Assembly (NCBI GenBank): GCA_030248225.1
Contig: JASANE010001549.1
Coordinates: 1-64,000 of the forward strand
Reading direction: 5' to 3'
Length of the DNA stretch: 64,000 bases
Source of the DNA: Trileptium ribeirensis
Taxonomy: Eukaryota > Nematoda > Enoplea > Enoplida > Thoracostomopsidae
In this document: piece by piece, positions 12,118-59,887 of the stretch
Layout: each line of letters begins with the position of its first letter
How positions within the stretch are numbered: position 1 is the stretch's first letter
Translations under genes and position numbers: made by a program
Notes under the pieces: generated by a model
The model's database searches: none
What the model saw: the letters and a program-made list of their open reading frames with translations, nothing else
Told to the model about the DNA's origin: nothing

Positions 12118-12383
12118 CGAAGATATTTCATAGTAGAGAAGACTTTTTGAACTGATGTGTGTTGGGCCAAGGACGTAGTTCGATGGCCGTCAACATTGTC
12201 TTTGCAATTACACTGGCCAGTCGTTGCATTGCACGCTGAATCCGCATTTATAACACCAGGATTACTGCATCCACACGTTTCGCAGGCGTCTGAATTGTCG
12301 CCTTGCAAAATCCAATACCCTGATTTGCAAGTATAACATGCGCGACCTGCTGCGTAAGTTTTGCATGGACTTTGCCCACCTTC
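12118..12383 (-). CDS. Laminin-type EGF-like exon
   Basis: The acceptor is TTTCGTTCAG just above 12383 and a plausible donor, CG/GTAATG, follows 12118. The exon encodes the end of one laminin-type EGF module (GRACYTCKSGYW, then a short linker to CETCGCSNPG) and the start of the next (NATTGQCNCKDNVDG). The CNCK-x-NVDG signature is diagnostic of laminin EGF repeats. After NVDG the usual RRCD-x-C continuation is absent and the frame drifts for about 20 residues. Either the true donor is earlier or the module has decayed. With the donor used here the exon ends in phase 2, which does not match the phase-1 sushi exon, so at least one exon between them would be unseen. The product is probably the same extracellular protein as the sushi exons. 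Confidence 0.6.
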
Positions 12384-25552: not shown

Positions 25553-25554
25553 AA

Positions 25555-25815
25555 TAAAAGGCGCTTCTGGGAATTCGACAAAGGCGCTTCTAAAAATTCG
25601 ACATAGGCGCTGCTGCGAATTGACAAAGGCGCTTCTGGGAATTCGACAAAAGCGCTTCTGGGAATTCGACAAAGGCACTTCTGGGAATTCGACAAAGGCA
25701 CTTCTGGGAATTCTACAAATGTGGATCTGCGAATTCGACAAAGGTGCTTCTGCGAATTCGACAAAGGCGCTTCTGGGAATTGGACAAAGACGCTTCCGGG
25801 AATTCGACAAAGGAG
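25555..25815. repeat. 23-bp tandem repeat with a restriction-like GAATTC core
   Basis: About eleven copies of GGCGCTTCTGGGAATTCGACAA-like units, 22-23 bp each, with most copies keeping GAATTC. Because 3 x 23 = 69, all three frames stay open and give 23-residue protein repeats on both strands. These frames are artefacts of the repeat. The flanks are unrelated AT-rich DNA. Confidence 0.9.
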
Positions 25816-26459
25816 ATTCTGTATGAAAACTTTATAATTTCACGAACATACTGAAAGTTGTGCAACTAAATTCACTATATTCTTCCGAACTATATGACAT
25901 CCACAAGGCTGGTAGACACATAGAATAAATTGTAAAAAAACAATATGTAAATGTGGCTGCGATCTATATTGACAACAAGTTATTGGGATTGATAAAGGCC
26001 GGTAATAAAACTATCACAATGTTTTAATCTCAATGAGTTCTGTCCTTTTAGCATAATAAATAAGAAACTTTACAAATAAATAAATAAAATCTGAGCTGCG
26101 GTTATATAAATATATACATACTATCTGTTTGTTTAGGAACCAGTTTTTAGCGTTGAATTACATTTTCTGTTATTGATAAGCACTCAAGATTTTTGGTAAT
26201 ATTGTAAGTAAAACAAAAAATATCAATATTTAGATTAAAAAAACGCATATTGAGAACAATTATACTAATGGTATATCGTCGGTGCTGTCAGACTACTAGA
26301 TAAGATTTAATTAATAATATTACTATTACTTTAATTTTCTTAGGTTACAATATTTCGTTAGAGCAAGACTTTGGATGTGTTCACATTGCGTCCGATCCTA
26401 TATGTCATTTCGCTGTACCGAATCGTTTGATGTAATGTGAAAAAATAAATATACGAAAA
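25816..26459. other. No recognised gene
   Basis: AT-rich sequence with no ORF or transposon signature. Confidence 0.35.
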
Positions 26460-27595: not shown

Positions 27596-27753
27596 TGAAA
27601 AGAATTTCCGATTCAAACTAAAACTGACAATGTCTGATCGGAAGCAACTTCAGCCATCAAGGCACGAGTTAAGGCGACTGTGCGTACAAAATTCTTAAGC
27701 CATACCTGGCTGTGCTACAACTGACTTGAAATACAGCTAATTTAACTAAACGT

Positions 27754-28284
27754 GTAATAACGGTGACGCAGCTGCATGGCGCAACTTCCTAACACCATGC
27801 CCTCACGACCCCGGCTAATGTTATAATGTCAAACCGATGTTCCCTGTCCTAATCTTACGGAAGTTGTTTTGTCTAGCGTAATTTGAAGTGGAAACGCGTG
27901 ATAATTTAGGTTTACCAGGGGAAATTTGAGTTACACTATGTTTGTGCCCGGTCGAACACTTTATTCTTTGTACCCTGAGTGGCCCCCACAGGGTTCCGAC
28001 ATTCCCTGAGAGCTTAATGTCGGGCTGTCTAATTGGTATCCTGATAACCTAGTTATATTAGTGTTTGGGCAATAAAGTTTTCCTAGTAAATTTTTTATCT
28101 TTTGTTTGAGTGTGACTATCACGCCAGTGAGTTGGACAGGTGATTTGGCGGAACACTCTCGCTGCAGTACCATTGCACAATTATATCAATGCTGGCGGCA
28201 GACCGCTCGTGTCAGGGCTTGGGGTATTTACGTCCGCAAGCCGTGGCACGAAGGGTCGGCCCGTCCACTTGAACATCCTTATCA
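27754..28284 (-). repeat. 3' LTR (core)
   Basis: It is almost the same sequence as 52248-52963, with TG...CA ends in both readings (TGTAATAACGG at the low end, CTTATCA at the high end). Compared with the other two copies it lacks about 190 bp near 27813-27830. In element sense it has a TATAAT-like box (about 28180) and an AATAAAG polyadenylation signal (about 27960-27968). Similarity to the copy at 1-1347 continues above 28284, so the original LTR may extend to about 29.2 kb. Confidence 0.8.
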
Positions 28285-29240
28285 CGCTAAGAGTTCAACA
28301 ACACGGGACGCGCCAGGTGATGTTCAAGAGTTTATTCAAAGTTATGTACAATGTCAGTTAACAACGGGCATCCGGTAAGGTAAATAGGTAATTACAAACG
28401 ACGACAGTAATAATCTACCCGTCCAAGCATTCGTTCCCTTGTCCAGTGCAAAAGAGAAAGGGGTGGCGCGAGCGAAGTCGTTCCCGGTAGTACCGGACCA
28501 AAATCTGCATATACCCGAGGCGTCCAACTAGGTCCGCTATAGCTCGGGTTAGGTGTTTGGCGTGCTTCGAAGTTCGCTCTTAATAGCGCGCAGCGGTGCA
28601 TGCAATTCGAGAACTATGCGAGGAAGGGAGCGAATTCGTTACAGCAATGACGGGGCATGAATCCGGGTACGAAAACCTGGATATACAGTACATGTTAGAA
28701 CGTAGTAGGATTAACGAAATCAATTATGATACAGATCATGAAACGGTAAAGTGCGAAAATTACTCGGAGTACAAGCGAGCAGATGCTGATGCTCGTAGTA
28801 CAACAAGCACGGCGCCGGCATGGCAGTCAAACGTTAAAACACTGTCTGATGTCTTCTTAATCCCGTAAATACGGTCTAGTATCCTTATCAAGTCTCTTAC
28901 AACGTTTCGTCTACAGGCCAGATCTTACTCCAATTGTTGACCGCTTTTGCTCAGTGTCTTTAGCAGACCAGACGTGAATCGAGATTTTGACTCGTGTCAT
29001 TCAAATCTGTAAATGGTGAGACTGGAACAGGGCGGCTGATTTTGATGGTGGGGGCACTGGTTGAACTACCTTAGATCGGCTGGGGACGTAGTTTTAATCA
29101 CTTTGAAAGGTCGCCCCTAGCTACGATTTCGACAGCCGAAAGGGAGAAGGGCACGAGCAATTGTCGTCTCTAGCGATTTTCTAGGCGACAAATGTCGCGC
29201 TTTCAACTGTTTGGGCGGATTGCCGTGCCCGTCCTACAAC
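28285..29240 (-). repeat. Possible upstream part of the 3' LTR
   Basis: Not present beside the 5' LTR at 52963, but collinear with positions about 370-590 of the left copy (for example ACCTAG-x2-GGAC followed by GGTTTACC/GGTATATG, then AATAAACT). Either the full LTR is about 1.5 kb and the 5' LTR is truncated, or this is 3' internal sequence. A possible LTR start, TGTAGGACGG, lies at 29236-29227 below a purine tract. Confidence 0.4.
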
Positions 29241-29282
29241 TGGGACTAGTTGGCGCCCTACGGGGTCTGGGTCTTTTCTTTT

Positions 29283-29336
29283 GGGGTGGTTTTGGTTGGT
29301 TCCTTTCTTTTCTTTTCCTTTGTTTCCTTTGTTGTT
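29283..29336 (-). promoter_or_regulatory. Candidate polypurine tract
   Basis: In element sense there is a run of about 31 purines with a single C (AAAGGAAACAAAGGAAAAG and so on) just upstream of the possible long-LTR start. A polypurine tract primes plus-strand DNA synthesis next to the 3' LTR. It is not immediately adjacent to a proven LTR border, so the role is uncertain. Confidence 0.35.
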
Positions 29337-29387
29337 GTTCTCGTCTTTTGTGTTCTCTCTCTCTAACTTATCCTATTGCCTTATAGT

Positions 29388-31800
29388 ACTGTACACGTTG
29401 TCGTTGTACAGTGACTCGACTGCACTATCGAAATTGTGCAGTCGAGTTATCACTAAAATTTTATTAAATTTGTTCAGACCTCGATGGTCGAGTGGTTAAT
29501 ACTGAAAGATCTGCAGCGGGCTTGAATTCCCCGTGCAGGATCGAAACTCAACAAGGGAAAATGAAAAAGGAGAGAGACAAAACGACAAAAATCAAGGCAA
29601 GGGCATACATAGTACATAGCCTAACGGGCAACCAGTGATAAAATGAAAAAATGCTTAAATTCAGCGATCAAGTCGCTCCAAACAGAAAACGGGGTTTTGC
29701 ACTTGCTCAGTTTGGGGTCAAAACGATTCGCGAGGGCTACGATTTTTCTTTATTGAAAATGAGAGCATTGTGGCTTCATCTCGACCATTTAGCACCCTAG
29801 CGTGCCTTTGAAAGCGTTTATTGTGACTGATTTTGGTGTTTAGCCATGCCATCGGTTCGTTCTGGTAGCAGGAGATTTCCTACGTACTACCATTGAGCTT
29901 AACCACGAGTCCGTGCCGTAATGAACCTTAGTAAACTTTATAACCTAATCGCGACAGCTTCGAAGTGAACGTTTTGAAGCAGTATCTTTCACTAGAGCTT
30001 AGGCGGTGGGGTCATCGGGGCCGTCGAGGACTCGGGCGGTCGGGTCTGGACTTCGTACAAGGCACTGATGCTTCTCTCGTGATAATCAAACAAACACTAA
30101 TCGAGGTTGAAATAGTCTGGCCACCTTTGTACGCGGCAATCATTGTGGTTAGAAAGCAAAACACCTTATGCTCACCTTGATATACTTAGATTTTTTTAGT
30201 CTTTTCCGTGTTCCCCAAATTTTCTTAACTCGTTCTGAGAAATGAAATTTTAGGGCTTCCTAAAGCCCTACAGAGGCTAGTCCTCTGTCCCTAACTGCAA
30301 CGTCAGTCCGAGCTCAAGCAGCGGCATGAGCATCGAACGGTCCACTAAGCTATAAATTTGTAAACCATAACCATAATCAGAAACAAGCAAGCAAGCAAAT
30401 CCCTAAGGCTTCATGGTGAAATTTTACCGTGGTCAGCTGAGGAAAAATTCGACAGCCCTAACTCAAGAGTAATAAGTCATGTAAATGCGCGGACGAGAGG
30501 CGTCCATTTTTGAGTTGTCTTACCTATGACCACGGGGAATCAGAACTACTTCGACTTTGGCGTCCCCAACTTAACACCTTCCGTGCATTCGCTCAGGATG
30601 CCCAAAACGGAACTCGACGGGAGGAGGTTTGTCAAAGAACCTATATGAGTGTAACAAGTCAGCATGTAAATTGGGGTGTCCATTGACGGACGTGAGGTCG
30701 ACCTATGCCGAGTCAACTAATGCTACAAATAATTGGTTTTCGCTGAACAGTCTTTTACAACCATAGCTGGGGAAAATAAACCCCCATGCTCTCGACTCTC
30801 ATCCTGACTTACTAAGTTCGATCCGGGAAAGCAACTAATAGTCCCCTTCCGTGAGACGAAAGATGTCTACACGGGTCCTCCAACGTCGAATCCCATTCCA
30901 AACCGAGAAAACAAAAGCACAAGAAAGTCAAAAATCGAGGCGAAACCATGAAATAAAACTAAAGCGTCGGAGCCGGTCAGTAAAGTCGACCGAACTCCGC
31001 GCTGCCGAAGTCGAACTGATTCTAAGAGACGACGCGGTAGTCGTAGCCTCAACATTTTCGGCTATGTTGAAGGATAGCGATTTTGTCGCTATCCAATCGG
31101 AGAAGATCTTTGAACGCCCACTTTTTTTAGTTCAAACCCGGGCGCCCAATCGAAAATTTCCCAAGATTTTATTTTTGACAGCTATCGTAAACCCTGGGTC
31201 CCCTTTAGAGAGAGTCGGCTTCAATCGAAATCGCCGACATCAAATTTGAACCCTCCGAATACTCGGAGGTCGACCATCTGTGACTTTTAGCTTACATTCC
31301 AACGAGATCTTGAACCTCGTCCATCTTTACTTTTAAATTTACGTCAGAAATTTATCCAGAGGTCATTGCTCAGATCTCTTAAAGCTCTTACCTAATCCTA
31401 AATCGACTGTTATCCCCCCAACTGTTCTACAAAAATGGTTGGATCACCTGTCAAATTCGAAATTTTGAATCTTTTTTCCCATACAAAACGCTCGGATTAA
31501 GCTGGAAATCTGTCCTCATTTCGGGACAGATTCGTCTTCTGGTCCACATTCATCAAATTCCCACCAGCTAACTCGTCGATTTAAGGTCAAATTCCAGCTA
31601 TTTAGCGAGTTAGCTTCATCATCCATCACCTAATTTAAGCTTAATGAGAGTCCATATGGGGCTAAATTTTCTACCAATCCCATGGGTAAACGTACAAACA
31701 TTGCACGTTTACATGTCGGCTTACAAGATAAAGCCAAACATTCCTAGCATTCCTAGCTGATGGCTTTTCAAATATCCCGACAGGACGTCTTTAGACGTCC
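29388..31800. other. Dense field of perfect stem-loops in the element's 3' region
   Basis: Perfect stems I can read include 29388-29412 (8 bp), 29414-29447 (12 bp, ACTCGACTGCAC), 30251-30270 (8 bp), 30271-30287 (6 bp), 30968-30999 (5+5 bp), 31072-31094 (9 bp, GGATAGCGA), 31252-31269 (7 bp), 31507-31532 (9 bp), 31566-31615 (10 bp), 31686-31712 (8 bp) and 31783-31800 (8 bp, TT loop). No credible protein is encoded on either strand; the 132-codon plus-strand frame 30851-31249 has no known domain. The region lies between the NADAR gene and the 3' LTR and would be a 3' untranslated region of the element's RNA. Confidence 0.6.
29476..29553 (+). tRNA. tRNA-like remnant (SINE head or tRNA pseudogene)
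   Basis: TGGTCGAGTGGTTAA matches an A box of a serine/leucine tRNA, and GGATCGAAACTC at 29538-29549 is a weakened B box about 53 bp later. The acceptor-stem halves do not pair and no clear anticodon loop is present, so this is not a functional tRNA. A tRNA-derived SINE is possible, but I cannot define its body. Confidence 0.35.
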
Positions 31801-34800
31801 CGGAGGAAGGAATGAGCTGATTTCGCGGTCTGGGGCGCAGCACATTCCTATGTATCCTCTGAGCTACCGGGGGTCCTATTCAGGAACTCCCAAAGCCCAC
31901 GGGAGGGTCCTAAACATACCCCCGTCCTTCCTAATCGTATGCGTCCAGTCCGTCCGTAAAACTTACAGATTTAGTAGAATTTCGTACGTCTTGTCCTCGT
32001 TCGTCCTGTTTTTTGTCATGTTCTTTCGTACTCTTTATATATATACATATATATCTATATCACTATATACATACACATATACATACAATACTCATGAGCA
32101 CATAAACACACACTACGCATGAGACACACAGGCGACCTGAGCGACAGAAAGGTCGCTCAAGTTCACACCAGAAACACGCAGAAGAACAACAACAACAACA
32201 ACACAACCACACAGCAACCACAACAACAACGACACAACACAATCACGACGACAACAACAGCGACAACCGACCAAAGAGGTCGGTTAGAGAGAGAGAAAAA
32301 GAAAAGGAAAAGCGGAAAAGAAGGGGCACGGGAAGTGAGGCGGGACAGGGAAATCCTGAGGGATTTTCGAAGGGCCGGGGCGAAATTCGGTCCCAGGACG
32401 ACGAATGGGGCCGAACGATACCAAACACGAGGGGGGTAGACGCAGTGGCCGGTCGAGACCCAATTTTGGGTTCCGACATACATTAGTATACAGGGTTTCA
32501 GCGGGCTTTCCCGCGCTAACGGTTGGGCGGAGCGACGCCCGCCGGGCATTGTTGAACTCGCCTTGGAAAGGCGATTCAAACCAGGGGTGATTTCCCTGCT
32601 TTAACGGCGGCGGTTAGAGGGTCACTAAAATCACGACAGATAGAGAGAGTGTCGATAGTGGTGCGGGCGCTTTCGTCGGCCGTCGCGGGTTAACGGGGCA
32701 ACTGACGGAGACCCGCCGGGCATCTTCGGAGATGTCTCGACGTGGTGAATACAATGAGGGCGAGTTGCCCATTTTCGAGTTAGGGATAAATTTTCGGTAA
32801 GTCTGTACCCACTTTCAGTCGGAGTTCCGAGCTGGGGGCACTTTAGCGGGTTATAGCGAACTAACGAGGAGTCGGGCGGACGCCCGCCGGATATCATTGT
32901 ACTCGCCAATAGCAGGCGAGTAAAATGAGGGGTCGCATGTGCGCATTTAGGGTCAGGGGTCGGGTACGAAGTTGGTGCAAACTGACGGAATTTAATGTTC
33001 AATTTTCGTGGTACATTATAAAACACGGAAATAAAGTAAATAGCAGCGGGATGACTGGTCAGATCGAGACCCGCCTGGCCTCGTCTGATGCCTAAATGGG
33101 TAGGCTACTTAAAAACACGCATACTTTCAATCAATGATCCGACGGTTATAAGAAAACCAGTTGCTAGGGCGCTGGTCAAGCCATTTTGGGGGTTCAAGAT
33201 GCTGTAACAAGGGAGGATTTGTCCGGTGGGGGCGGAAAAACAGAAGTATCGGGACGGGAAAATCAAGTAGCACGCATGCACACACACATATATGTATCGT
33301 TATATGTTCAAATGTATATATTTAGGTCATATCCTCGCGGAACCATGGTCACCAGCCAAACCTAGCGTAAGTATTGGCCGTTAATTTGTATTTTCACCCA
33401 CTTGTCCCTAGGATATCTCAGGAAATCTCCCAGCGATTTGTGATGTCTTGAGCTCGTTCGAAAGCCCTGGAAATTCTCTATCGAAAAGTACTCGGAGCAT
33501 TTTCGAGAAATCTGAACCGTTGGACGGTTACGGGCCGGTAAACAGGCACGAGGTCCGTTATTTCCGAATGAGCGGAAACTACCGTAACCCATTTGTTTCA
33601 GCTTACTTTAGCGACCATTATGCTATAGTTTGATCGAACCAGGTAAAATTGATAGTCCTGATTTTGATCACTTCCCAATCCCTTAAATTGTCAAAAGCCT
33701 CCTATTCCCGGACGGTCTAAATTTTGAAGTTTCAATGGGGAAACAGGGGTTGTTGGTCGAGTTCCGCTCGGGTTTTCTGTCCTGGCCAGTTGAACATTCT
33801 CCTACCTTCCTTGTCTTTCTGAGTTCGTACAGCTACCCGAAGTGAATTTCCTCTGGGCTCACATGAGCCTGTCCCAATATATAATTATACAAGAAATCAT
33901 GCAATAGCAAAATTATATCAATGGCAAACCATGGCAATGACAAAAATCATACTCATAGTAAGAATATCAGTGGTAATAAACAAAGTAATTATCCATGGCC
34001 ATGGCACCATGCAACCTATTAAAAATTTGTTCCCATATATTGTGTCTGGTGCCATTTGAGGCGCGTTCAAGTAGTTTTAACGTCGAAATCATGTCAGAGA
34101 CACGTAACGGGCCGGAACGAGCCTGTTACATCTCTTATATTTTTAAATGGAAATTTTCGGACTTAATTATTCGGGTTGGAGGCAATTTTCTCTGTTGTTC
34201 TTATGGTAAAGTTCGTGCCTATAGTGGAGTCTCCGACAACTAAGACCCCTTTTTCAATAAGTTACATGAAAATTCCGGTTTCCTAGTTTACTTAATGTTA
34301 TTGTCGAAATGTCTTATGGACCATCATTGGTCCCAGCCACACACCGTGGTCCTGGCCTACTAAAATTTAAAGTTGGTTGCTTGTTTACGAATTTCTGAAA
34401 ATGTGTTATTCGATGCCAACTTTTAGCCAAATTCCGGCGAGCCCTTCTTAGATCCTGGCAATTTCTACTCCTGAAAAGTCTTCCTCTTATATTTTTAAGG
34501 GGGTGAAAAGGACTTTGCACTACTTTTTGAAAGAATTTTCAGCATGGTTAAAAGTCGCTTTATACAATTATTTCTGCCCTGGTGCCATGATAAAGTTATG
34601 CACACAATAACATATTACACAACGAATACAAATGTAAATAAAATAGGTGATAACCTAACACATTCATAATGTTACCTATACATCGGATAATATACATATA
34701 ACATCGTTATGATACATTGGTTTCGGGCTCACCGCAAGTGCATTTGACAGTTCCTTGTGGCAAAACAACCAAAAAGCTCCTTCCATAATCAATGGACATA

Positions 34801-34830
34801 TGGTCATGTCAGAGTTTCCTTCTTATTGTC
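31801..34830 (-). other. Noncoding 3' region of the element
   Basis: No gene is supported. It contains a TA-rich microsatellite (about 32035-32090), CAA/CAACAA repeats (about 32183-32275), the hairpin-bearing repeat array at 32500-33105, and otherwise unique sequence of intermediate GC. Confidence 0.45.
32500..33105. repeat. Three to four imperfect direct repeats with GC-rich hairpins
   Basis: Units near 32505-32590, 32690-32755 and 32845-32930 share CTAACG followed by GACGCCCGCCGGGCAT-like sequence and then (in the first and third) ACTCGCC with a hairpin. A weaker fourth lies at 33060-33100. Spacing is about 160-185 bp. Units one and three contain a GGGCG...CGCCC stem, followed by a CTCGCC...GGCGA(G) stem. 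Confidence 0.55.
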
Positions 34831-35964
34831 TCACTCCCAACTATTGGGTGCTAGGTTCTGTTGAATCCACGTACGGAAATATCCGAGATAGGGTTCGGTA
34901 ATGTGTGGCTCCGCAATTTCGGCGCCGTCCGTAATACTTTCCCACGCTCCCGATTCGTTCAATTCGGGTGGGTAGTCGGGCATCGACGACTTCTGCATCC
35001 TACCGGGGAACTGCCATTTAATGTCTTGAAACATCTTGGTAAACTCGTCGTGCCATTCGACAGTATTGTCCTGTGCCATGTCCCAATGTGGAGATGGCGG
35101 AGCGATAATTGCTCGGGCCCCCTTACTGAGTAGGTAGTCGAATGAGCATATGTAACGGCGCACTCGACGCATGACTTTGCTAGGTGTATCCAGCAAACGG
35201 CCTTCGTGCGGCTTCGACCGTAGGGCCGCTTTATATCCACCAAGAATCATGATGGTTTTAGTCTGCGGCGTTGCAATGCACGTCGCCAGTCGGACCAGGA
35301 ATTGCATGGTGGCTCCTGGCCATGCTAGGGCGAACCACCCTTGAGAGGCGGCCATGCTGACCAAAGGCGACGCTAATGAGTCGCCCAGAATCAACACAGT
35401 TGGCCAGAAGGTGTCGTTATGGTGAAGGAAGGTTTGTACTTCCTCCAATAGGCGACCCATAACATTATGGCAGGGTCGCGGTCGTTTGCCGAAGGTGATG
35501 TCCTCTGGCCCTAGCCCAATGCCCCAGAAGGAATCGGACCGATTTGCCTCAAGCAATTGCGCGTGCCCTGTGGCGAGGAGGGCCTTCTGAAACTGTGGGA
35601 TTTTGAATTTTTCCAGCAGCACCGTCCGCATTTGGTGAGGGCGCACTGAGGGGAGGCGCTCCGTTGTCTCCTGGTCGAGGAACTTTTGTTTGTTCCGACG
35701 GGAGATGGCTTTGACGTCTCGAGCTCCCATTTTCAAGTCCGATATGTCTTGTTTCGCCTGTTCCTCGTCGCATAAATACGTGACGAGGAGCTGATATCCT
35801 TGCTCCGTTGAGGCATATTCGATGGGATATTGATTTACTGTTTGGCCTAACGGAGCCATGTTAGAAAGTTCCGGCCATCGTGTGCCTTTGGACAGGAACG
35901 TTTCAATCGGCGCATCATAGTTGATGGTGTAATACGGCACGCGAGGTTGCGAAAGTTGTTCCAT
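34831..35964 (-). CDS. NADAR domain fused to SGNH/GDSL-like domain
   Basis: 377 codons, intact, ATG at 35964. Residues about 28-182 follow the NADAR (YbiA/DUF1768) family in order: LSNM at 33-36, ASTEQGYQLL at 51-60 with the conserved Glu, a GARDVKAISR block at 80-89, QMR at 111-113, EKF at 118-120, LLATGHAQLLEA at 129-140, SFWGIG at 145-150, and HNVMGRLLEEV at 166-176. NADAR proteins bind ADP-ribose-type ligands, and some members remove ADP-ribose from guanine bases. Residues about 188-377 look like an SGNH hydrolase: GDSL at 194-197 (block I serine), PGAT at 216-219, ILGG at 240-243, and a late His in PHIT at 353-356. However, the block III Asn (GxND) reads GGYK and the usual Asp three before the His is not seen, so catalysis by this half is doubtful. 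It is the last gene of the element, 122 bp after the preceding ORF, and the frame is unbroken although pol is ruined. Confidence 0.82.
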   Translation of the reverse strand: MEQLSQPRVPYYTINYDAPIETFLSKGTRWPELSNMAPLGQTVNQYPIEYASTEQGYQLLVTYLCDEEQAKQDISDLKMGARDVKAISRRNKQKFLDQETTERLPSVRPHQMRTVLLEKFKIPQFQKALLATGHAQLLEANRSDSFWGIGLGPEDITFGKRPRPCHNVMGRLLEEVQTFLHHNDTFWPTVLILGDSLASPLVSMAASQGWFALAWPGATMQFLVRLATCIATPQTKTIMILGGYKAALRSKPHEGRLLDTPSKVMRRVRRYICSFDYLLSKGARAIIAPPSPHWDMAQDNTVEWHDEFTKMFQDIKWQFPGRMQKSSMPDYPPELNESGAWESITDGAEIAEPHITEPYLGYFRTWIQQNLAPNSWE

Positions 35965-38812: not shown

Positions 38813-39470
38813 GATGCAGTACGGCAGGACTTCATCCCACGTAGTGTGGTCCTTTTCAGGTAATGCTACTCTTATGAGAAATAAAAGAGTGCGGTTAAAG
38901 CGTTAGATCTCTCCATTTGCCTTCGGATTGTAACTTAAGGTTTCACGCTTAAATGTATTTAGTCTAGCGCACAAAGCTTCCATCACTTCTGAGACGAAAC
39001 ATCCGCCTCGGTCTGAGACTAAGCTCTTCGGGTGCGCCATAGCGGCACACCATGTCCTCGACAAAAACCTTAGCTACACTCTTGGCGTCTGGTCCGGCAG
39101 AGCAGCGGCAATTACTAGTTTCGTGAACTGGTCGATAAAGGCAATTACGTACCTATTTCCGTTTCGGGATAGCACCCGAGTGTCCAATATGTCAACAAAC
39201 ATGCGGTGCATGGGTGCACTAGCCAAAGGGGTTCTCTCCGAGCGCGGCTCGAACATGTTGTGGTAAATTCCTTGAGCGTTGGCAGAGTACGCACCGCTTA
39301 ACATATTCGTCTACGTCCTTACCCATGGTTTCCCAGTAATAGAACTGTTTGAGTTTGAGTAATAGATCTCTACCTGGATGTCCACCAAACAGCGTATCGT
39401 GTTCATGCTTAAGTATTTGTCGTATTAGCAATCTTGGTACGCATAATTTGGGTCTATGGTCGTTTGGCAT
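38813..39470 (-). pseudogene. pol: Integrase zinc-finger and catalytic core, broken
   Basis: At 39470-39219 is the HHCC finger (HEHDTLFGGHPG, then YVKRCVLCQRS). At 39304-39074, in another frame, is the core with the first catalytic Asp in MHRMFVDILD. At about 39010-38890 is the SDRGGCF block with the second Asp. In the block YNPKANGEI, the codon at the catalytic Glu position (38905-38903) is TAA. At least one frameshift and this stop make the enzyme dead. The spacing otherwise fits a D,D-35-E Ty3/gypsy integrase. Confidence 0.75.
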
Positions 39471-40443: not shown

Positions 40444-40813
40444 TAGCTCATTTCGCCATTGGCCCGTCGCGAATTTCGCGGCGGTCTCTCGAACAGTGCC
40501 TTAAGTGGCTTATGGTCAGTCTCAACGTGGAATTCGTGTCCAAGTAGGTAGTGTCTGAAGTGTAAGGCAGCCCATCGAATGGCAAGAGCTTCGGTATCGA
40601 TGGCAGGATATCGGCGTTGATAGTCCACGAGCGATTTGCTCGCGTAGGCGATAGGCAATGTCCCTTTGTCGGTCTTTTGCGAAAGCACAGCCCTAGGGCA
40701 TATCCAGAAGCGTCCGTTTGGAATATAAAAGGTTAAGAAAAATCCGGATGGAGTAATGGTTCCTGTACTAACGCCTTACGTAGTTTTCCGAATGCTTCCT
40801 CGCATTGCGGTGT
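40440..40813 (-). pseudogene. pol: RNase H N-terminal part, broken
   Basis: The open frame 40688-40440 includes PIAYASKSLVDYQRRYPAIDTEALAI (with the catalytic Glu in DTEALA) and HVETDHKPLKAL (catalytic Asp). The first catalytic Asp block (LQTDASGYALG-like) lies above 40700 in another frame. At least two frame breaks occur between the RT thumb and this domain. Confidence 0.65.
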
Positions 40814-41206
40814 TCACTTAAATTCACTGTCCTTCCGTCTGAGTGCGTTGAGCGGCTCGCAAATTTCAGAGTAATGTGGTATAAATTTGTGATAGTATCC
40901 TACAAGTCCTAGGAAACTTTGTAACTGTTTGAGAGTTTCCGGTCGTTTGTAATTGTCTATTGCGGCGGTTTTCTCGGGGTCTGGTTTGACTCCTTCAGAA
41001 CTAATAATGTGTCCAAGGTATTTTTCCAGTTGTTTCTGTCCAAATTGGCATTTTGAAGGTTTTAACTCGAGGTTGGCCTTACGGAACCTATCAAATACAG
41101 TAATTAGGTCCGCTAGGTGTTGTTCGAATGTGGGCGAAAAGACTAGTATGTCATCTATATAGATGAGGCATCGTTCCCATTCTAAGCCCTTTAATATGAT
41201 TGACAT
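40814..41206 (-). CDS. pol: Reverse transcriptase, C-terminal part with YIDD
   Basis: 130 open codons after a frameshift. They contain the catalytic YIDD at about 41159-41148 (LIYIDDILVFSP), the SKCQFG motif, LGHIIS-x-GVKPDPEK, and the RT thumb/connection FLGLVGYYHKFIPHYS. This is typical Ty3/gypsy. A stop at 40814-40816 follows. Confidence 0.85.
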   Translation of the reverse strand: MSIILKGLEWERCLIYIDDILVFSPTFEQHLADLITVFDRFRKANLELKPSKCQFGQKQLEKYLGHIISSEGVKPDPEKTAAIDNYKRPETLKQLQSFLGLVGYYHKFIPHYSEICEPLNALRRKDSEFK

Positions 41207-41235
41207 GCACCTTTGAAAGGCGCCGGGCGAAGAAT

Positions 41236-43275
41236 TCAGTCCGAATGGCAGAACGTTGTATTCATATTGTCCGTGGACAGTGAGAAGGAAGTTTTCTCCT
41301 TGGTCTCGGGGTCCAATTCTAGTTGCCAGAAACCTTTGTTAAGATCTAAACTGGACATGAATTTGGTGTTTCTGAGACATCCCAATATGTCATCTATGCG
41401 GGGTAATGGGTATAAGTCACGTTCTGCAACTACGTTGAGCTTACGGAAGTCGACACACAACCGCAAGGTACCGTCACTTTTGGTGACGTAAACTATGGGA
41501 GAACCCCAAGGTGAATCTGATGGCGTTATTAGACCTGCTTCTACCATATTGTTTAATTCCTCATGCAAGGGCTCTCGCAATGAGTGTGCTAGGCGATAGG
41601 GTACCTGTTTAATGGGCCTTGCGTCTCCAGTAACTATCCTGTGCTGGTGCACACCACACCTTCCTAGATCAAACGGATGTACACTGAATATGTCTGCGTT
41701 CTCCGAGATAGTCGTTTTCAATTGTTTAAGCTCGAAAGGGTTAAGGGCCGTTTGTCCGAAGTCAAATTTACTCAAAACTTGTATGGATCGTTCGGTGTCA
41801 ATTGTCTTCTTCTGTTCGCTTATAATTTGTACAACATTGTCTCGTGTAACTCCAATGTTATTACATTGCTTAGTGCGCTTCGGAGGGTCGAGTTGTAGCA
41901 AACGCTTGTTGCTGTCATATAAGAACTCGACCTCGTTATCGTCAAGCATCTCAAAATGTCCTATTGTCTGTCCGGCATGTATAGCAACGGGAAAGTTCCC
42001 AAAGTTCATTAGGGCTATTGGGATCATGCGTTGGCCAGTAAGTACCAGAGAGTGGGCTATAGCAACGTCCCTAATAAATGGGTCTGGTACGAATAAAGCT
42101 TGACCAGTCGGAGGTTGAGTAATTTCCGGGATGGCGTTGATGAACAGCTCGGTGTTTGGTGGTACTTGAGTGTATTTCCTAGTTACTACGTTAATGACTG
42201 GTGGTCTATAGTCCCCTTGGTCGGCGAAAGGCGCCGAGCAGTTTTCAGTTCCATTGGATAGATCCATACAGCGGTCTTTGAAGTTTATGGCGACATATGG
42301 TAGTAATGCCATGAAGTCAGTACCTAAGATACATTCGTACGGAGTGTCGGTTGCTACCTGAAAGTCACACGGTGTGCTTAGCGATCCTATTGTGATCGGC
42401 GCTTTCACGACTCCGCTTATGTTCAACTCTTGTTGTGTAGCTGATACTATGCGGGTAGAGTTCGTATCGCGACGAACCAGTCCCAGACGGGCGGCTAGGG
42501 CTTGGGACATGATTGAAACGTCGGCTCCAGTGTCCACGACCGTCGTAACTGGGGTACCAAGTATGGTTGCGTTAATAAGCAATGGGGTGTTGCCCGCATT
42601 CATAGTGTTTAGTTGTCTAGTGAATATACCTTGACGAGGTACACGGCGTGAGTCACGAGTGGGAGCGACGAATAGTTCATCGTCCTCAATGGAAACAAGT
42701 TCTTCCTCGGATGAGTTACGTGATGTCCATAGTGTATTCGAGCGACGTGGGGCACGGCTGGACGCGACGGACACGCGCGGCGATCCCGAAAGCCCAACCG
42801 TGACCTCAGTCGGCGAAGTTCTGTCTGTATGAGGGAAGTCGTCTTCCTCGGGTGGGGCACTCGGTAATTGCTGTTTTGCTCTAATCCATCGGATTGTTTT
42901 CTTAGGCTTACGATCGGTCCTAATTAGTCGTCCACGACATGGGAACCATCGGGGGATATAGTATCCATACTTAGGTGGGACCTTGCATTTAGTCATAAAA
43001 TAAATCAGACTGAACAGTCCTACAACGACGGTAATGAGGAAGTAGGGCAAGAATCCTGTGTATTCCACAGCGGGAAGATTAACAACGCTCCGTACTTGAT
43101 CTTTAGCTATCCGCGCGACCCGCAAATTGATAGCATTGGCGTTGTCAAGTGAGTCCCAAGTCAGAGGTCTTAGCTTGATACCGGATAGCCGGTCAATAGT
43201 GATATTTGGCCAAAATTTTATTGTAATTTTCTCGGGTTTTAACATGCTAGTGAGCACTATTGACCCTACAACCAA
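41236..43275 (-). CDS. pol: Envelope membrane anchor fused to protease and RT (one open frame)
   Basis: 679 codons open. The first codon is not an ATG start: the frame continues from env across a single TGA at 43302-43300. Residues 1-73 are envelope-like extracellular sequence, 74-94 a membrane anchor (GFLPYFLITVVVGLFSLIYF), then a basic cytoplasmic-like stretch, PSAP at 138-141, and a Ser/Arg/Glu-rich linker. Protease lies at about 229-330 with the DTGAD active site at 248-252 and ILGTDF at 316-321. RT starts at about 540 (LITPSDSPWGSP, CVDFRKLN, DLNKGFWQLELD). A one-base frameshift at about 41255, just before the expected VLPFGL block, ends it at 41236. An envelope anchor directly upstream of protease in the same frame is not the normal retroviral order. 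Confidence 0.8.
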   Translation of the reverse strand: MVVGSIVLTSMLKPEKITIKFWPNITIDRLSGIKLRPLTWDSLDNANAINLRVARIAKDQVRSVVNLPAVEYTGFLPYFLITVVVGLFSLIYFMTKCKVPPKYGYYIPRWFPCRGRLIRTDRKPKKTIRWIRAKQQLPSAPPEEDDFPHTDRTSPTEVTVGLSGSPRVSVASSRAPRRSNTLWTSRNSSEEELVSIEDDELFVAPTRDSRRVPRQGIFTRQLNTMNAGNTPLLINATILGTPVTTVVDTGADVSIMSQALAARLGLVRRDTNSTRIVSATQQELNISGVVKAPITIGSLSTPCDFQVATDTPYECILGTDFMALLPYVAINFKDRCMDLSNGTENCSAPFADQGDYRPPVINVVTRKYTQVPPNTELFINAIPEITQPPTGQALFVPDPFIRDVAIAHSLVLTGQRMIPIALMNFGNFPVAIHAGQTIGHFEMLDDNEVEFLYDSNKRLLQLDPPKRTKQCNNIGVTRDNVVQIISEQKKTIDTERSIQVLSKFDFGQTALNPFELKQLKTTISENADIFSVHPFDLGRCGVHQHRIVTGDARPIKQVPYRLAHSLREPLHEELNNMVEAGLITPSDSPWGSPIVYVTKSDGTLRLCVDFRKLNVVAERDLYPLPRIDDILGCLRNTKFMSSLDLNKGFWQLELDPETKEKTSFSLSTDNMNTTFCHSD

Positions 43276-43299: not shown

Positions 43300-44067
43300 T
43301 CACAAAACTCCATTTGGCGGTACCTTTATTGGCTTACCCAACGTAACGTGATCTAGTTGTCTCCGATTTGTCAGTATAACCTCAGGTTCATTAGTCCGAA
43401 TTAATACGCCTTGTATGGTCGTGTGTACGGATGTGTCATTGGCAAGTGGGCCTATCAGGGAACGGTTGCTGCATGTATGTTTAATAGTCTCAGGCACATG
43501 TTCGCACGCAATGGTCCATTCTAAACAATTTGTACTATGATCGGTTATCAGCGCGTGTGGTTCACAAAAAGCGATTACTGGTCTTTGTTTGCATGCTCCC
43601 AAATTGAGTGATTCGAAGCGAATGTGCCCCAAACGGGCGGCGTATTGAGGTAGCGGCAGTCTCAGCTGCGTCAGCGTGGCAGGTGCGTTCCAGTTGGTGT
43701 TATAGATCCGAAAATATGTTCGAATATCATTGCGCATTGGCAGTGGTATTTGCAAAATGAATCCAAAACGGAACGCGGTTAAATCCACGCTCACAGGCAT
43801 GACGCGGCCAAACTGATAGGCGAGGCTAGGCTCGCGCATGAGGATAGTCTTGGAAATACGTGGATCCATGGAAAATAACCGTCGTAGCATGACGACGTCG
43901 ATAACGGCGGGAGATAATTCGCCGTTAAGCATGGATTCCATTATAGCTTGTACCGACGAGCGCATATTGGCTCGAAGTATGTGATCTATTAGCTGATGGT
44001 GCACGTGCGCGATCTCTTTCTGATCGGCACACCTAACCTGTTCTATCATAGAGACAACCTTTTGCAT
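43300..44067 (-). pseudogene. env: Envelope-like glycoprotein, C-terminal ectodomain
   Basis: 255 open codons, starting downstream of the MITE. The frame is in fact open from about 44110 to 43300. A helical stretch of about 40 residues comes first, then a domain with six cysteines (positions about 160-206) and N-glycosylation sequons (NRS, NDT). It ends at TGA 43302-43300, directly in frame with the membrane anchor that follows. Cysteine spacing and position resemble the C-terminal half of insect errantivirus / baculovirus-F-like or other class-I-like fusion proteins. I cannot assign the family firmly. Confidence 0.6.
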
Positions 44068-44119
44068 GCTATGGTGTAGAAACGCATAGATGTCCTCGTT
44101 TGCTCGGGTCAGTTGCTTA

Positions 44120-44629
44120 TGCGGCGTTCACGTTATAATGTCCCCAAAGTTTGGAACCTATGTACCCCACACAGTGTCAGACACACTGTTGACAACAGGG
44201 TGTCTTAGACACCCCCATGTTTTTAATAAATTTTTTCAACGGTAGCTAGTTACGCGTATTACCACTTGCCGACAGTGTCAGGCACACCGTGTCTTCTGGC
44301 AGTTTTATTGACACTGTTCGGAATTATTTGAGCAATGTTCATATGGGCTAGATACAAATATCGAGAATTTAGGAAAAACTCCACAGGACAGTTGACTAAT
44401 AAACCGCATTCGCTACAGACGGTGTCCGTTATAATTAATTCGCGCCAAATTGGTAGCTAAGGGTGTGTACGACACTGTCTAGAAAAAATTTAGTAGCTAA
44501 GGGTGTGTCGTACACCCTCGGCATTTGATTTACAGTATGGGTGCCGCCCTGACTGTCTATACGGTAGGGTCGCGACTACAGGGGGTCAAAAGTTCCAAAC
44601 AGCGGGGACATTATAACGTGAACGCCGCA
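44120..44629. mobile_element. MITE inserted in env (PIF/Harbinger type)
   Basis: A 510-bp noncoding element flanked by TTA at 44117-44119 and 44630-44632. There is a perfect 26-bp terminal inverted repeat beginning TGCGGCGTTCACGTTATAA at both ends. The inside carries several GTGTCAGACACAC / GGTGTCTTAGACACC / GGGTGTGTCGTACACCC palindromes. It splits the envelope frame, so the insertion postdates loss of, or ended, envelope function. The termini differ from those of MITE copies A and B but the target type is the same. Confidence 0.88.
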
Positions 44630-44661
44630 TTATGGCCTTAGTATTTCGAAAGGAGACATCG

Positions 44662-45066
44662 TTAGTCTTCGCGCATGAATTTATCGAGGACAGTTGCTTG
44701 CTGACGAACATTGTTAATGTGTACTCCATTGGGAAAAGCCATTCCCAGGCCTAAGAAACCTGAGACGGCACCTGCAGCAGCGGCAATCAAGCTGGCAAAA
44801 CGCTTTTCTCTTTTATTCGTAAGGTCACACAATTGTTCGTTTGCGACGCAGAAAGAATGCACAAGTAGCGAATAATAATTGGTGTCCAGTACACCGTGAT
44901 AGGCGTCATCTAATTCGCGTTCCAAAGCGCTTAGGGTTTCGTGCAACTGTGGGTATTCGGTGCAGTTGACCTTCCGGCAGCAGTCAGCGCGACATGATCC
45001 GTTCGCTTCATAAGGTGGACAGAATTTGCTCACGTAAGGATCGGACTTACGTTCCCAATCTCGAAG
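44662..45066 (-). pseudogene. env: Envelope-like glycoprotein, middle part with furin-like site
   Basis: Continues in the same frame as the upstream part after a single TAA at 45069-45067. It contains a cysteine-rich start (CRADCCRKVNC, sequon NCT), then a helical region. A furin-like KREKR lies at about 44814-44800, followed at once by a hydrophobic Ala/Gly-rich segment of about 22 residues (44799-44734), as in class I fusion peptides. It ends at TAA 44664-44662, about 30 bp before the MITE target site. Two stops and the MITE mean no full glycoprotein is made. Confidence 0.68.
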
Positions 45067-45663
45067 TTATAACTGCAATACCACTGGCAAGTGCGTTGTC
45101 TGGTCCGAGGTGACCACCAAGCCCTGTGGCTCGATGACCACTCCTACCTGACGATTGACAAAGGCACTTAATCGCGAGATCGAATCGTTAAATGGCGAAA
45201 GCGTTGCGCGTGTAGAGCTGAGCGCGGAGAGCCGAAGTAACAACAGAATTGTACATACTCTCCACATTACTGAAGGATGTCCGAGGCCATTAAGGCTCGG
45301 TGAAGAGGATCGTACCCCGTTACGATTGGTTTCCCTCATGGTCTCGTTATTTGCAAATAGTTCCGTAGGGTCGCTATTAGTCTCCCCGTCGCTCGTTTCC
45401 GTGTCACTCGACTCAATTATGCTTTCTTGCTGGGCGGAGTCGCTATTGGAGTTATCTTCCGATTCTCCGTCGGATGAGTCGAGGTAAGCGGCTAAGGCTG
45501 TGGTTAGTTGTGCGTCCAAGTTCGGGACGGAACAGTTGGTGTCATCGTCCGGAAACAAGCATAGTTCTGAAATTAAGCGGTCCCTGCCCAACTTTAGTCC
45601 GGCAGACGTGTCTCCCTCTGTCTCAAGCAGTCCAGCGATGTCGGGGCGCCGCAAAAGTCTCAA
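45067..45663 (-). pseudogene. env: Envelope-like precursor, N-terminal part
   Basis: 198 open codons, continuing upstream to a stop near 45700. It has an acidic Ser/Asp/Glu-rich leader (residues about 60-115), then a hydrophobic signal-like segment at about 133-150 (VMWRVCTILLLLRLSAL), then the start of the ectodomain. The likely initiation Met is one of those just before the hydrophobic segment (residue 109 or 133). A strong donor, AAGCG/GTAAGTAA, at about 45731 lies just upstream and could serve a spliced env RNA. It ends at a single TAA (45069-45067). Confidence 0.55.
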
Positions 45664-45693
45664 GCGTGCACTTAGCAGTACTAGTCGAGCAAG

Positions 45694-47568: not shown

Positions 47569-48683
47569 TTAGCTCATTGCAGGTAAGTCGCTGCGCGCTT
47601 CAACGACGGTGGGCGCGACGGAAGCCTCACAATGCGCTGGACAGTCTTTGTTCGCCACCCTGCCATCTACATCCCCGTACCTGGGCAGACCCCGGGCAAT
47701 ACTTTCAGCCCCAACGATCATACCCGCTTCATCGGCGCAATCGGCCGCGAACCCGTCGCTACCTCTGCTTGGATACGGGTGACAAGGGCGGCCCCGGTCA
47801 GCATCAAGGAAGGACCCAATGACCGTGGAACCCCTTGCCAATGAGGTCGGGAAAGTCACCTCAACTCCATCAGTAGCATACTTTCGCCGGCTCGAAGTAG
47901 CATTCAATTACATCAATATCACTTCCATTATCATCTTCCAAGAATTCACTAAGGCTACAAGCGCGTCCTAACTTAGGCAAATCAATACACTCATACGACA
48001 CATAATTCTCATCATCACACAAGGGACGACCCGCGCGGCGGTCCGACCCGCATACTACATCATACGACCTATAATTTAGAACGGAACTAGGACTGGGCGA
48101 CTCCGAGAGGGCCCTAACATCGAACACCGCAGCCTCCATCGTTCCTGGTCGTCCGCCGACCTCTAAAAGCTCCATGGGTGCCTCACACGGCGACCCGAAT
48201 AAATCCAATTCTTCCTGAGCCAACATCATCGGCTTCCCTGCCGGAATCATCAACATCAACACTCTCGACACACGGATGGCCAGCCACAGAGGAGGAAAAT
48301 AATATCAATGGCTCTTCAAATACAACAACATCATCCTCGCTCACAATCTCTGCAGTCATCTCCAAAGAGCTGGGGGTTCCGCAATTCCCCCTTGAGGTGA
48401 TTCCCTGGGGAGTACCGGTTATAAAATCAACACTTCCTTTAAAATCACTCAACCTATAATTTTGAACGCAACCATCTTCCATTTCTTCGCAAATTTCCAT
48501 ACTACTATCACTATCCTTCACTACGGTTAACGTTCGTGGGTTCGTTCCGAACCCTCGCATGACCGGATAGTTCGATTGATCGATCCTTCGCTCGCCTCGC
48601 TGTTCGCCACTTACTTCGCTCGCAGACATATATACACGTGGATCAACACCCGCCCTAGGTGCGTCCACACATAACATAGACAA
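47569..48683 (-). pseudogene. Acidic unassigned ORF(s) after gag, frameshifted
   Basis: Three overlapping minus-strand frames (48683-48183, 48271-47870, 47907-47569) follow one another and look like one decayed acidic reading frame with two frameshifts. Short similar motifs occur in the first two (VQNYRLSDF and VLNYRSYDV). It overlaps the gag 3' end by about 70 bp in another frame. There is no known domain. Confidence 0.4.
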
Positions 48684-50740
48684 TCCTCTCCCAGGTATCC
48701 CTCTTTTTGGTGTTTTATATTTTCTTTGCTATATACAGTGTTAGCGTGCTCAATTCCGTGTGGCTCATCGCCCAAGTCCCTAGGGCACGATTCCATAAGT
48801 CCGGGGCTGTCCATACCCTGAACTAGATCACGGCTCCGTGGAAGACGCGCGGCATCAGCCCACGAAGTGGACGTGATCACGTTCAGGTGTCTCTCAACAA
48901 GTCCTTCCATCATCTCAAAGTCGTCCAAGTCATCGTGTCTGTTTATCAAGTATCCGTCGTCATCGTACAATGGTTCGTCCGTAGTCGCGATAGCGTTCAC
49001 CTGTCCAGTCGGTTCACTATGCCCTAGTTTGCCTTGAATCATACCGAGTTCGCGACTGAGCACTTCTAGGCGATGACTAGTAGCTGGGCTTGGTTCTCTA
49101 TTTCCATTGCCTTGCGATGCGCTACAATTCAATTGGTAGCGCCGGCGCGGTACAGCGCCATTGTTCCGGTTACTGTCGTCCCGTGAGTAAAATCGGCCAG
49201 ACTGCTGCTGATGGGGGCCCATGCCTCTGTTAGGGTGGGGTCGTTCGCTTTGGGCCCGTTGATACCCGTAGGCCTGTGCCAGCCGGTTGTTATAGTTATC
49301 AACTGGGCGGTTGGCGGCATGTTCTCCATTTCCGCGATTATTATTAGCGAATCCCGGCGGTGGTCGGCCATATTGCGGTCCCACTTGATTTGGTCCGCTC
49401 GGTCGCATTCCAGCATTGGGCGGATTGTTCCATCCGGAATTACTCCGATATCCGTTTCCGTTGTCAGCTCGCCGAAACTGTGGCGGTGGGCCTCCTCGGC
49501 CCGAATTATAGTTATCGTTTCGTGGGTATGTACCCACACCATTTTTTGGTCCTGGCTGCCCTGGCTCTCGACGCGCGGCTCCAGATGCGTATGCTGGGGC
49601 TGGATCGACATTGCGCGGCGCGCCATTCACGGCAGCTGGCGGATAGCGCACGTTATATGGGCATTCGCGCATAACGTGTCCTGGTTCTCCGCAGCGATAA
49701 CAAATAATATGCGGTATCGGCAAGCACGGTGGCGCAGCAGGTGGGCCAGGCACAAACGGCGGCGCGAGAGCGTTAAGCTGGCGCGGGTTCTCGACCCTTT
49801 TATCAATTACATCCAGCAACCGACTTATTGTATCGCTGTTATTATTATTCGCCTTGCGATGTTCCTCCATCATATTTTGAAGCTGTGTGATCAGGCCTTC
49901 ACCTACTTCCTCAAGCAAAGAGTTTACAGTTTCAGCGCGAGGCTTACTGGCGACAGGCGCGTCCGGGTCGGGGCAAGCAGCGCTAGCGCCCTCGTATCGC
50001 TTAATAACACCCACGGTGTCCCGAAATGTCTCACACTCATGGATCTGGTTGAGAACCTGCCTACGCACCTCCGGGCGGAAGCCTCTTTGGAAAAACATTC
50101 GGAGCATGGTGTCTCTCTGTTCGTCTTCCATGTCTGGAAAAGCGCGATCACACAACTTCTGCAACTCTAAACCGTACATCGCTACTGGCTCGTTAGCCCC
50201 TTGTTGTCGCGTGCACAGTCCTGACAATGGTTTCTCAGGACGGCGGGACGACGAAAATAAAAAGCGCAAGTTGGCAACTAGCCCTAGGAAGCTTTGGCGT
50301 TTTCCCGATGGAAGGCCCTCGAAGGCCTCCCTTGCCGGTCCACGCAAGAGAGCCGGAACGCAAATCAATTTCCGACGATCGTCCCAACCATTGGCGTTGG
50401 CGAGACGATTATACATCCGAACCCAGTCTTCGAAATCTTGGCCTCCGGGTTTCCTATCAAAAGTTGGCATGTCCCTTAGCGGGATCATAGGAGGGCCAGC
50501 CGCTTGTGTAGTCAGGTGGTGCAGGATAGCGTTAGCAGTATTTTTATCCAATCCAGGTGACTCAGATGGTTCTCCTCTACGGAGTTATCCAGGGGGTCGG
50601 GGCGGGGGCATGAGCGGTCGCTCACCAGTGTTGGTGGTACGTCGGGGCCTGGCACGTAAGTCATCCTCCCTATGTCCATCAATCCAGCCAAGGAAGTCGT
50701 TGGTTTCCAAGTCTCCGTTATGATCGGCGTTGGGCTCCAT
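48611..50740 (-). pseudogene. gag: gag with CCHC zinc knuckle
   Basis: ATG at 50740-50738, a single in-frame TAA at 50587-50585 after about 50 codons, then 646 open codons. The Retrotrans_gag-type capsid region is FDRKPGGQDFEDWVRMYN through GFRPEVRRQVLNQI. A short coiled-coil-like region and one CCHC knuckle (ICYRCGEPGHVMRECP, codons about 284-297 counted from 50551) follow. Then comes a long Gly/Arg/Asn/Pro-rich RNA-binding-like tail. Gag forms the particle shell and binds the element RNA. The single stop makes this copy a pseudogene unless it is read through. Confidence 0.85.
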
Positions 50741-52243: not shown

Positions 52244-52247
52244 ACGA

Positions 52248-52963
52248 TGTAACAACGGTGACGCAGCTGTATGGCGCAACTTCCTAACACCATGCCCTTA
52301 CGACCCCGGCTATCATAACCTAAGTTTCGCAATTTAGTCACTTTTCTTGGTCAGACCCAAGAAGCTATGGAGCTTAGCAGGCCGCAGACGCGCTTCACGG
52401 GTGTGTTCGGACCCCGCCCGATTGGTTGCGCACGTGTCTAGTATCGAGGTATGATTGCAGAGGTCCCCCAGGGAGGTTGACACCGAAACCTGCTCACAGG
52501 TCATGATGTCAAACCGATATTCCCTATCCTAATCTAAAGGAAGTTGTTTTGTCTAGCATGATTCAAGGCAAAACGCGTGATAGTTTAAGTTTGCTAGGTA
52601 AACTTTGAGTTCCACTGAGTTTATTCTTGGATGAACACTTTATTATTTGTAGCCTAGGTGGCCCCCACAGGGTTCCGACATTCCCTGAGAGTTTAATGTC
52701 GGGCTGTTTAATTGGTATCCTGATAACCTAGTTATATTAGTGTTTGGGCAATAAAGTTTTCCTAGTAAATTTTTTATCTTTTGTTTGAGCGTGACTATCA
52801 CGCCAGTGAGTTGGACAGGTGATTTGGCGGAACACTCTCGCTGCAGTACCATTGCACAATTATATCAATGCTGGCGGCAGACCGCTCGTGTCAGGGCTTG
52901 GAGTATTTACGTCCGCAAGCCGTGGCACGAAGGGTCGGCCCGTCCACTTGAACATCCTTATCA
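52248..52963 (-). repeat. 5' LTR
   Basis: A direct repeat of 27754-28284 plus the roughly 190-bp block (about 52311-52503) that the 3' copy lacks. In element sense it has a TATAAT-like box at about 52850 and AATAAAG at about 52640, and it ends TTGTTACA. The sequence beyond 52963 does not match that beyond 28284, so this is either the true LTR start or a truncation. Scattered substitutions between the two LTRs show the insertion is old. Confidence 0.8.
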
Positions 52964-59880: not shown

Positions 59881-59887
59881 CCCGCAT

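What the first reader, a model, noticed from the sequence alone, without database searches (positions are those of the whole stretch)
34831..35964. NADAR-SGNH fusion gene carried by an enveloped LTR retroelement
Seen: an intact 377-codon ORF whose first half reproduces the NADAR block order (LSNM, STEQGYQ, QMR, EKF, FWGIG, HNVMGRLL) and whose second half begins with a GDSL block and ends with a His block. It lies inside the provirus, after integrase, on the same strand. Known: NADAR (YbiA/DUF1768) proteins act on ADP-ribose compounds and some reverse guanine ADP-ribosylation; SGNH proteins are esterases. Inference: the element carries an eraser of ADP-ribosylation that could blunt PARP-type or DNA/RNA ADP-ribosylating host defence, or helps in NAD metabolism. 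The frame is intact while gag, env, RT and integrase are broken, so it may be kept by selection or simply be lucky. I do not know of a described LTR retroelement with this fusion, but I cannot search.
Basis: partly seen in the sequence, partly recalled or inferred. Interest (0 to 1): 0.93.

Follow-up and report, generated by a model that had tools for sequence, protein, structure and literature searches.

The report
ADP-ribose-domain gene in giant retroelement
A very large retrovirus-like jumping element in an animal genome carries an extra, selectively preserved gene that joins an ADP-ribose-handling (NADAR) domain to a worn-out esterase-like domain, which hints that such elements may interfere with ADP-ribose-based cell defences, though this has not been tested.

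Summary

The interpretation needs correction. The SGNH half is no conserved esterase: Ser196 is Asn in 8 of 8 sister copies, block III has no Asn, no His is invariant. The NADAR half keeps both catalytic Glu, but has Val in 35 of 35 copies where an essential Lys is expected. An ADP-ribose eraser or reader is plausible, not shown.

NADAR in Gypsy elements and SGNH ORF3s in rotifer LTR elements are published; the fusion, and an env-like region inside one long gag-pol frame, were not found in the papers searched. New variant of a known kind.

The parts
34831..35964 (-). Accessory ORF, 377 codons, NADAR + SGNH-like fold
35425..35877 (-). NADAR domain, residues 30-180
   Evidence: PF08719 57.8 bits, cut-off 35.1
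34834..35418 (-). C-terminal half, residues 183-377: SGNH-like fold without conserved catalytic residues
   Evidence: structure model and fold search; residues
52247..52965 (-). 5' LTR of the element
   Evidence: matches the end of the 3' flanks of three other copies; 92% identical over 467 bp to the 3' LTR
27753..28286 (-). 3' LTR, about 187 bp shorter than the 5' LTR
28287..34830 (-). Long 3' region between ORF and 3' LTR, alike between copies, no codon-position signal
48611..50584 (-). gag-like frame with CCHC zinc knuckle
   Evidence: zf-CCHC 30.2 bits, cut-off 20.8
43300..45693 (-). env-like region between gag and protease, in broken frames: basic RxKR site and hydrophobic stretch; a membrane-spanning stretch follows near 43000
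   Evidence: by eye; no Pfam match; in phase with gag and RT in 18 other copies
42310..42576 (-). Aspartyl protease
   Evidence: PF13975 51.1 bits, cut-off 28.2
41003..41484 (-). Reverse transcriptase, in two frames
   Evidence: PF00078, 77.3 bits for the larger piece, cut-off 29.6
40467..40694 (-). RNase H
   Evidence: PF17917 81.9 bits, cut-off 24.8
39270..39440 (-). Integrase zinc-binding domain
   Evidence: PF17921 65.6 bits, cut-off 25.5

Best explanation
The ORF is an accessory gene of a ~25 kb Ty3-type LTR retroelement family with an env-like region (shown, the env part by features only). It is translated from its own ATG after pol (inferred). Its NADAR half forms an ADP-ribose pocket in which both catalytic acids are kept (residues shown, pocket inferred). 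Its SGNH-fold half is no longer a conserved esterase and probably serves as a binding or assembly module (loss shown, role inferred). Most likely the protein recognises, and may hydrolyse, ADP-ribose that host ADP-ribosyltransferases attach to the element's RNA, cDNA or particle proteins, and so blunts host restriction (inferred, untested).
For: NADAR by profile and by likeness to 8bau. Linkage: 42 of 109 listed copies have a listed RT upstream on the same strand, 40 at 5341-5371 bp; 10 of 13 stretches taken downstream of further RTs hold the ORF. Purifying selection on both halves. E54, E139, D144 and W147 kept in 35 of 35 copies; R90, F95 and D97 invariant in 24 of 24. The ATG is kept while the frame before it is not. 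Viral NADARs are argued to act on host ADP-ribosylation (PMC9503650, passages); ZAP/PARP13 restricts LINE-1 (PMC4441479, abstract).
Against: Val61 stands where K50 of 8bau (K95 of E. coli C7, essential) is expected, in 35 of 35 copies. No activity was measured. A DarT-family search of the genome gave 0 matches; a PARP search did not complete. 3 of 13 stretches held no match. Copies were taken from the best-scoring end of the list, which favours intact frames.
Confidence: 0.45

Rival explanations
1. A non-catalytic ADP-ribose reader or tether: with the Lys lost and the esterase half dead, the protein only binds ADP-ribosylated chromatin, RNA or proteins, for example to bring the pre-integration complex to PARP-marked DNA.
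For: Val at the Lys position in 35 of 35 copies; SGNH catalytic residues not conserved; most other mapped pocket residues kept.
Against: Both catalytic Glu are kept in 35 of 35 copies, which a mere reader need not do.
Confidence: 0.27
2. An N-glycosidase on another substrate (for example RNA ends, NAD-capped RNA or small metabolites), used in processing the element's own RNA rather than against host defence.
For: Weak match to the riboflavin-intermediate N-glycosidase family, 48.6 bits against a cut-off of 73.7; RNA processing was suggested for the Ectocarpus elements (PMC12477816, passages).
Against: Below that family's cut-off; no substrate evidence.
Confidence: 0.18
3. An active SGNH esterase that helps the element cross or attach to membranes, with NADAR as a lesser part.
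For: SGNH-like fold; GDS block in 27 of 28 main copies; membrane roles proposed for the GDSL ORFs of other retroelements (PMC5408684, passages).
Against: GDN in 8 of 8 sister copies, no Asn in block III, no invariant His; NADAR is the more conserved half.
Confidence: 0.06
4. A passenger gene without function, open in the window by luck.
For: The window copy alone could not exclude it.
Against: dN/dS near 0.1 over deep divergence, fixed position, two subfamilies.
Confidence: 0.03

Closest known systems
Ectocarpus Gypsy lineage with a YbiA-type NADAR, e.g. Gypsy-12_Ec32 (PMC12477816, passages)
   Same: Gypsy LTR element with a NADAR domain conserved within a lineage.
   Different: There the NADAR is at the N-terminus of Pol; here it is a separate ORF after integrase, fused to an SGNH-like fold.
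Bdelloid rotifer LTR elements with a GDSL ORF3, e.g. Vesta (PMC5408684, abstract and passages)
   Same: SGNH-type ORF3 after pol in an LTR element.
   Different: No NADAR is mentioned there (0 occurrences); those ORFs keep intact catalytic residues, while Athena-L derivatives, which are Penelope-like, lack them as here.
Tx1 LINEs of the Pacific oyster with NADAR-like ORF1 (PMC12477816, passages)
   Same: NADAR-type domain in an animal retroelement.
   Different: Non-LTR element, NADAR in ORF1 before pol.
DarT1-linked and YbiA-type NADAR hydrolases (PMC11543638, passages and section 12; PMC11125620, passages)
   Same: Same domain family; both catalytic Glu positions, Asp and Trp kept.
   Different: Essential Lys replaced by Val; no DarT found in this genome.

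Membership tests
NADAR superfamily (PF08719) | Profile match above the curated cut-off | tested here: met
   57.8 bits against 35.1; 24 of 24 copies match
NADAR superfamily (PF08719) | Catalytic acids equivalent to E43 and E125 of the Phytophthora protein | tested here: met
   E54 and E139 in 35 of 35 copies; mapping
Guanine-ADPr hydrolase of the characterised NADAR type | Lys equivalent to K50 (8bau) or K95 (E. coli C7) | tested here: not met
   Val61 in 35 of 35 copies, Lys in 8bau and in 17 of 17 other NADARs aligned. The stretch is gapless, but HMMER's confidence there is low.
Guanine-ADPr hydrolase of the characterised NADAR type | De-ADP-ribosylation activity | not testable with these tools
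   needs an assay
SGNH hydrolase | SGNH fold | tested here: met
SGNH hydrolase | Nucleophile Ser in block I | tested here: not met
   Ser in 27 of 28 main copies, but Asn in 8 of 8 sister copies
SGNH hydrolase | Asn in block III and catalytic His in the last block | tested here: not met
   GGYK/GGYR and no invariant His in 23 sequences
Ty3/gypsy-type LTR element | Order protease, RT, RNase H, integrase, and LTRs | tested here: met
   for order; for LTRs. No RT tree was built.
Ty3/gypsy-type LTR element | Target-site duplication | tested here: inconclusive
   no clear duplication at the window LTR ends
Env glycoprotein carrier | Match to a known fusion glycoprotein family | tested here: inconclusive
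   no Pfam match for the pieces; cleavage site and hydrophobic stretches by eye only
Ectocarpus NADAR Gypsy lineage | NADAR at the N-terminus of Pol | tested here: not met
   separate ORF after integrase

The most novel reading that the evidence does not exclude
A ~25 kb retrovirus-like lineage of animals with an env-like region built into one frame of up to ~4,700 codons between gag and protease, and a dedicated ADP-ribose counter-defence protein in which a dead SGNH fold has been recruited as the targeting module. Together with the NADARs of unrelated mobile elements in the same genome it would mean that ADP-ribosylation is a general battleground between this host and its mobile DNA.
Probability: 0.3. 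Interest if true: 0.88.

Novelty: new variant of a known kind. Interest (0 to 1): 0.72.

Why it matters
ADP-ribose erasers are discussed as viral counter-measures in RNA viruses and phages (PMC9503650, passages), but the role of NADAR in retroelements is called unclear in the one paper found on it (PMC12477816, passages). A high-copy element with a separate, conserved NADAR gene gives a single soluble protein to assay, and the natural Lys-to-Val change together with the dead esterase half makes the question of eraser versus reader directly testable. The env-like region inside the gag-pol frame is a second oddity, since retroelement env usually lies after pol (recalled).

Tried and rejected
Homologues outside this genome: full protein against 5.8 billion proteins, none at E<=0.001; C half as alignment, none at E<=0.1; NADAR half as alignment, none at E<=0.01; viral contigs, no relatives. 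These collections may hold few animals, so the spread among animals is open.

DarT partner in the genome: 0 matches (six frames, introns not modelled). COX1 to name the host gave only a broken nuclear copy. The host is taken as an animal from a laminin-EGF exon but was not identified. The full-length structure model was too poor to use (mean pLDDT 36.6). The NADAR half was not modelled alone. The 3' region was tested for further genes and showed no codon signal. Reading the open frame before the ATG as part of the protein was rejected: 8 of 27 copies with room have a stop there and several change frame. Neutral passenger and active esterase were marked down (see rivals).

Results against my reading: 3 of 13 stretches taken at the expected place held no match. 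108 of 150 RT places have no listed NADAR; 13 of them were looked at. The Foldseek list also holds unrelated folds from rank 16 on, at weaker E-values. Single pairs of very close copies have higher dN/dS (up to 0.45 over the whole ORF).

Rows dropped: alignment A1 uses 24 of 28 main copies (four with odd length or a stop left out), A2 and A3 use 16 of these, A4 uses 16 main and 7 of 8 sister copies (a damaged one left out). The dN/dS uses 28 main and 7 sister copies.

Full report

The element. Upstream on the same strand, in order, are a gag frame with a CCHC knuckle, an env-like region, aspartyl protease, RT, RNase H and the integrase zinc domain. The env label rests on a basic cleavage-like site, hydrophobic stretches and a membrane-spanning stretch seen by eye; no Pfam family matched. 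The LTRs were found by following three other copies past the ORF: likeness continues for about 7.2-7.4 kb and ends in a ~710-730 bp stretch that matches 52247-52965 and, with a gap, 27753-28286 of the window. The window LTRs are 92% identical over 467 bp, so this insertion is not recent, in keeping with its broken gag-pol. The element spans about 25.2 kb. I found no clear target-site duplication. The ~6.5 kb between the ORF and the 3' LTR shows no codon-position signal.

Copies. In the window's own genome (687 Mb, 20,229 contigs; an animal, judging by a laminin-EGF exon) the ORF has 109 scored copies of 2,831 first-look candidates, 101 of 109 without a stop; 10 more came from 13 stretches downstream of listed RTs, so at least 119. 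Of the 109, 42 (the window's own included) have a listed RT upstream on the same strand, 40 of them at 5341-5371 bp. In 8 copies read the ORF is of a sister kind, 66-77% identical to the window's; 6 of these 8 have a listed gag piece, 89% identical to the window's. In 18 copies the gag, env and RT pieces report one and the same open frame, in phase and at nearly constant spacing (5487-5502 and 3222-3231 bp), with frames of 3,370 to 4,749 codons. So the env-like region lies inside the gag-pol frame, before protease.

Selection. Over 28 main copies (378 pairs) mean dN is 0.053 and mean dS 0.564, ratio 0.094. By half: NADAR 0.071 within main, 0.070 within sister, 0.051 between; C half 0.104, 0.097 and 0.110. 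Between subfamilies dS is near saturation: 9 of 196 NADAR values and 94 of 196 C-half values could not be computed, so those two ratios are rough. Both halves are under purifying selection, NADAR more strongly. The start is most likely the ATG: M1 is kept (28 of 28 main; 7 of 7 sister) while 8 of 27 copies with room have a stop in the 41 codons before it and several change frame.

Residues. Against 8bau, E43, E125, D130 and W133 correspond to E54, E139, D144 and W147, kept in 35 of 35 copies. R79, Y84 and D86 correspond to R90, F95 and D97, invariant in the 24 copies of alignment A1 (the aromatic is Phe). The numbering offset of two between the printed chain and the paper is my inference; these positions fall in place with it. 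K50, whose E. coli C7 equivalent K95 is essential for guanine-ADPr hydrolysis (PMC11543638, section 12 read), is V61 in 35 of 35, while 8bau and 17 of 17 other NADARs aligned from this genome have Lys (these 17 remained of 30 loci after near-duplicates and loci without a clean frame were dropped). In the C half Ser196 of the GDS block is Ser in 27 of 28 main copies (Ala in one) but Asn in 8 of 8 sister copies; block III reads GGYK or GGYR; H305 is Ala or Thr in the sister copies (7 of 7); no His is invariant in the 23 sequences aligned. So this half keeps an SGNH-like fold but not its chemistry.

How it probably works. I think the protein recognises ADP-ribose on element or host macromolecules and may remove it, with the SGNH fold as a docking or assembly part. 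The NADAR pocket is supported by residue mapping; activity is not shown, and the lost Lys is a real reason for doubt, so a pure reader is the main rival. [quoted passage not shown] A DarT-family search of the genome gave 0 matches; a PARP search did not complete.

What is known. NADAR in Gypsy elements is published for Ectocarpus, at the N-terminus of Pol, with further NADAR-like ORF1s in oyster Tx1 LINEs (PMC12477816, passages). GDSL/SGNH ORF3s are published for bdelloid LTR elements (PMC5408684, abstract and passages). Paper searches for NADAR with retrotransposon (104 papers, 20 listed), NADAR domain (15 listed of 15), YbiA with Gypsy and retrotransposon (1), SGNH with Gypsy and retrotransposon (5) and two broader ones (searches listed of many) listed no description of the fusion, judged from titles, abstract starts and the passages read; one search for the phrase 'env between gag' with other terms listed nothing, and three later searches failed. 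The library lacks most subscription papers, so novelty is provisional.

Verdict. New variant of a known kind, interest 0.72.

Noticed in passing
L009-L038 (e.g. L012:1-663 and L012:1408-1935): The genome holds at least 150 further NADAR ORFs of other kinds, all over the cut-off. Some sit beside a packaging-ATPase-like ORF (L012: Pox_A32 26.3 bits, cut-off 22.8; L009, L010 and L034 alike by eye), as in Polinton- or adintovirus-like elements.
   Followed up: partly
L037:2-1213 and 1330-2052: A NADAR ORF (134.2 bits) lies next to a long ORF that looks like an SF1 helicase by eye.
   Followed up: no
43300-45693: An env-like region lies between gag and protease; in 18 other copies it is in one open frame with gag and RT. 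Retroelement env usually lies after pol (recalled).
   Followed up: partly
28287-34830: A ~6.5 kb region between the accessory ORF and the 3' LTR is alike between copies but shows no codon signal.
   Followed up: partly
865-1353: A further piece of the same LTR on the opposite strand, perhaps a solo LTR.
   Followed up: no
56980-59957: A LINE-like element with RT and endonuclease domains.
   Followed up: partly
12114-12542: A laminin-EGF-like exon (37.2 bits, cut-off 21), which points to an animal host.
   Followed up: partly
25534-25827; 62150-62591; 63239-64000: Tandem repeat arrays, the first with a unit of about 23 bp.
   Followed up: no
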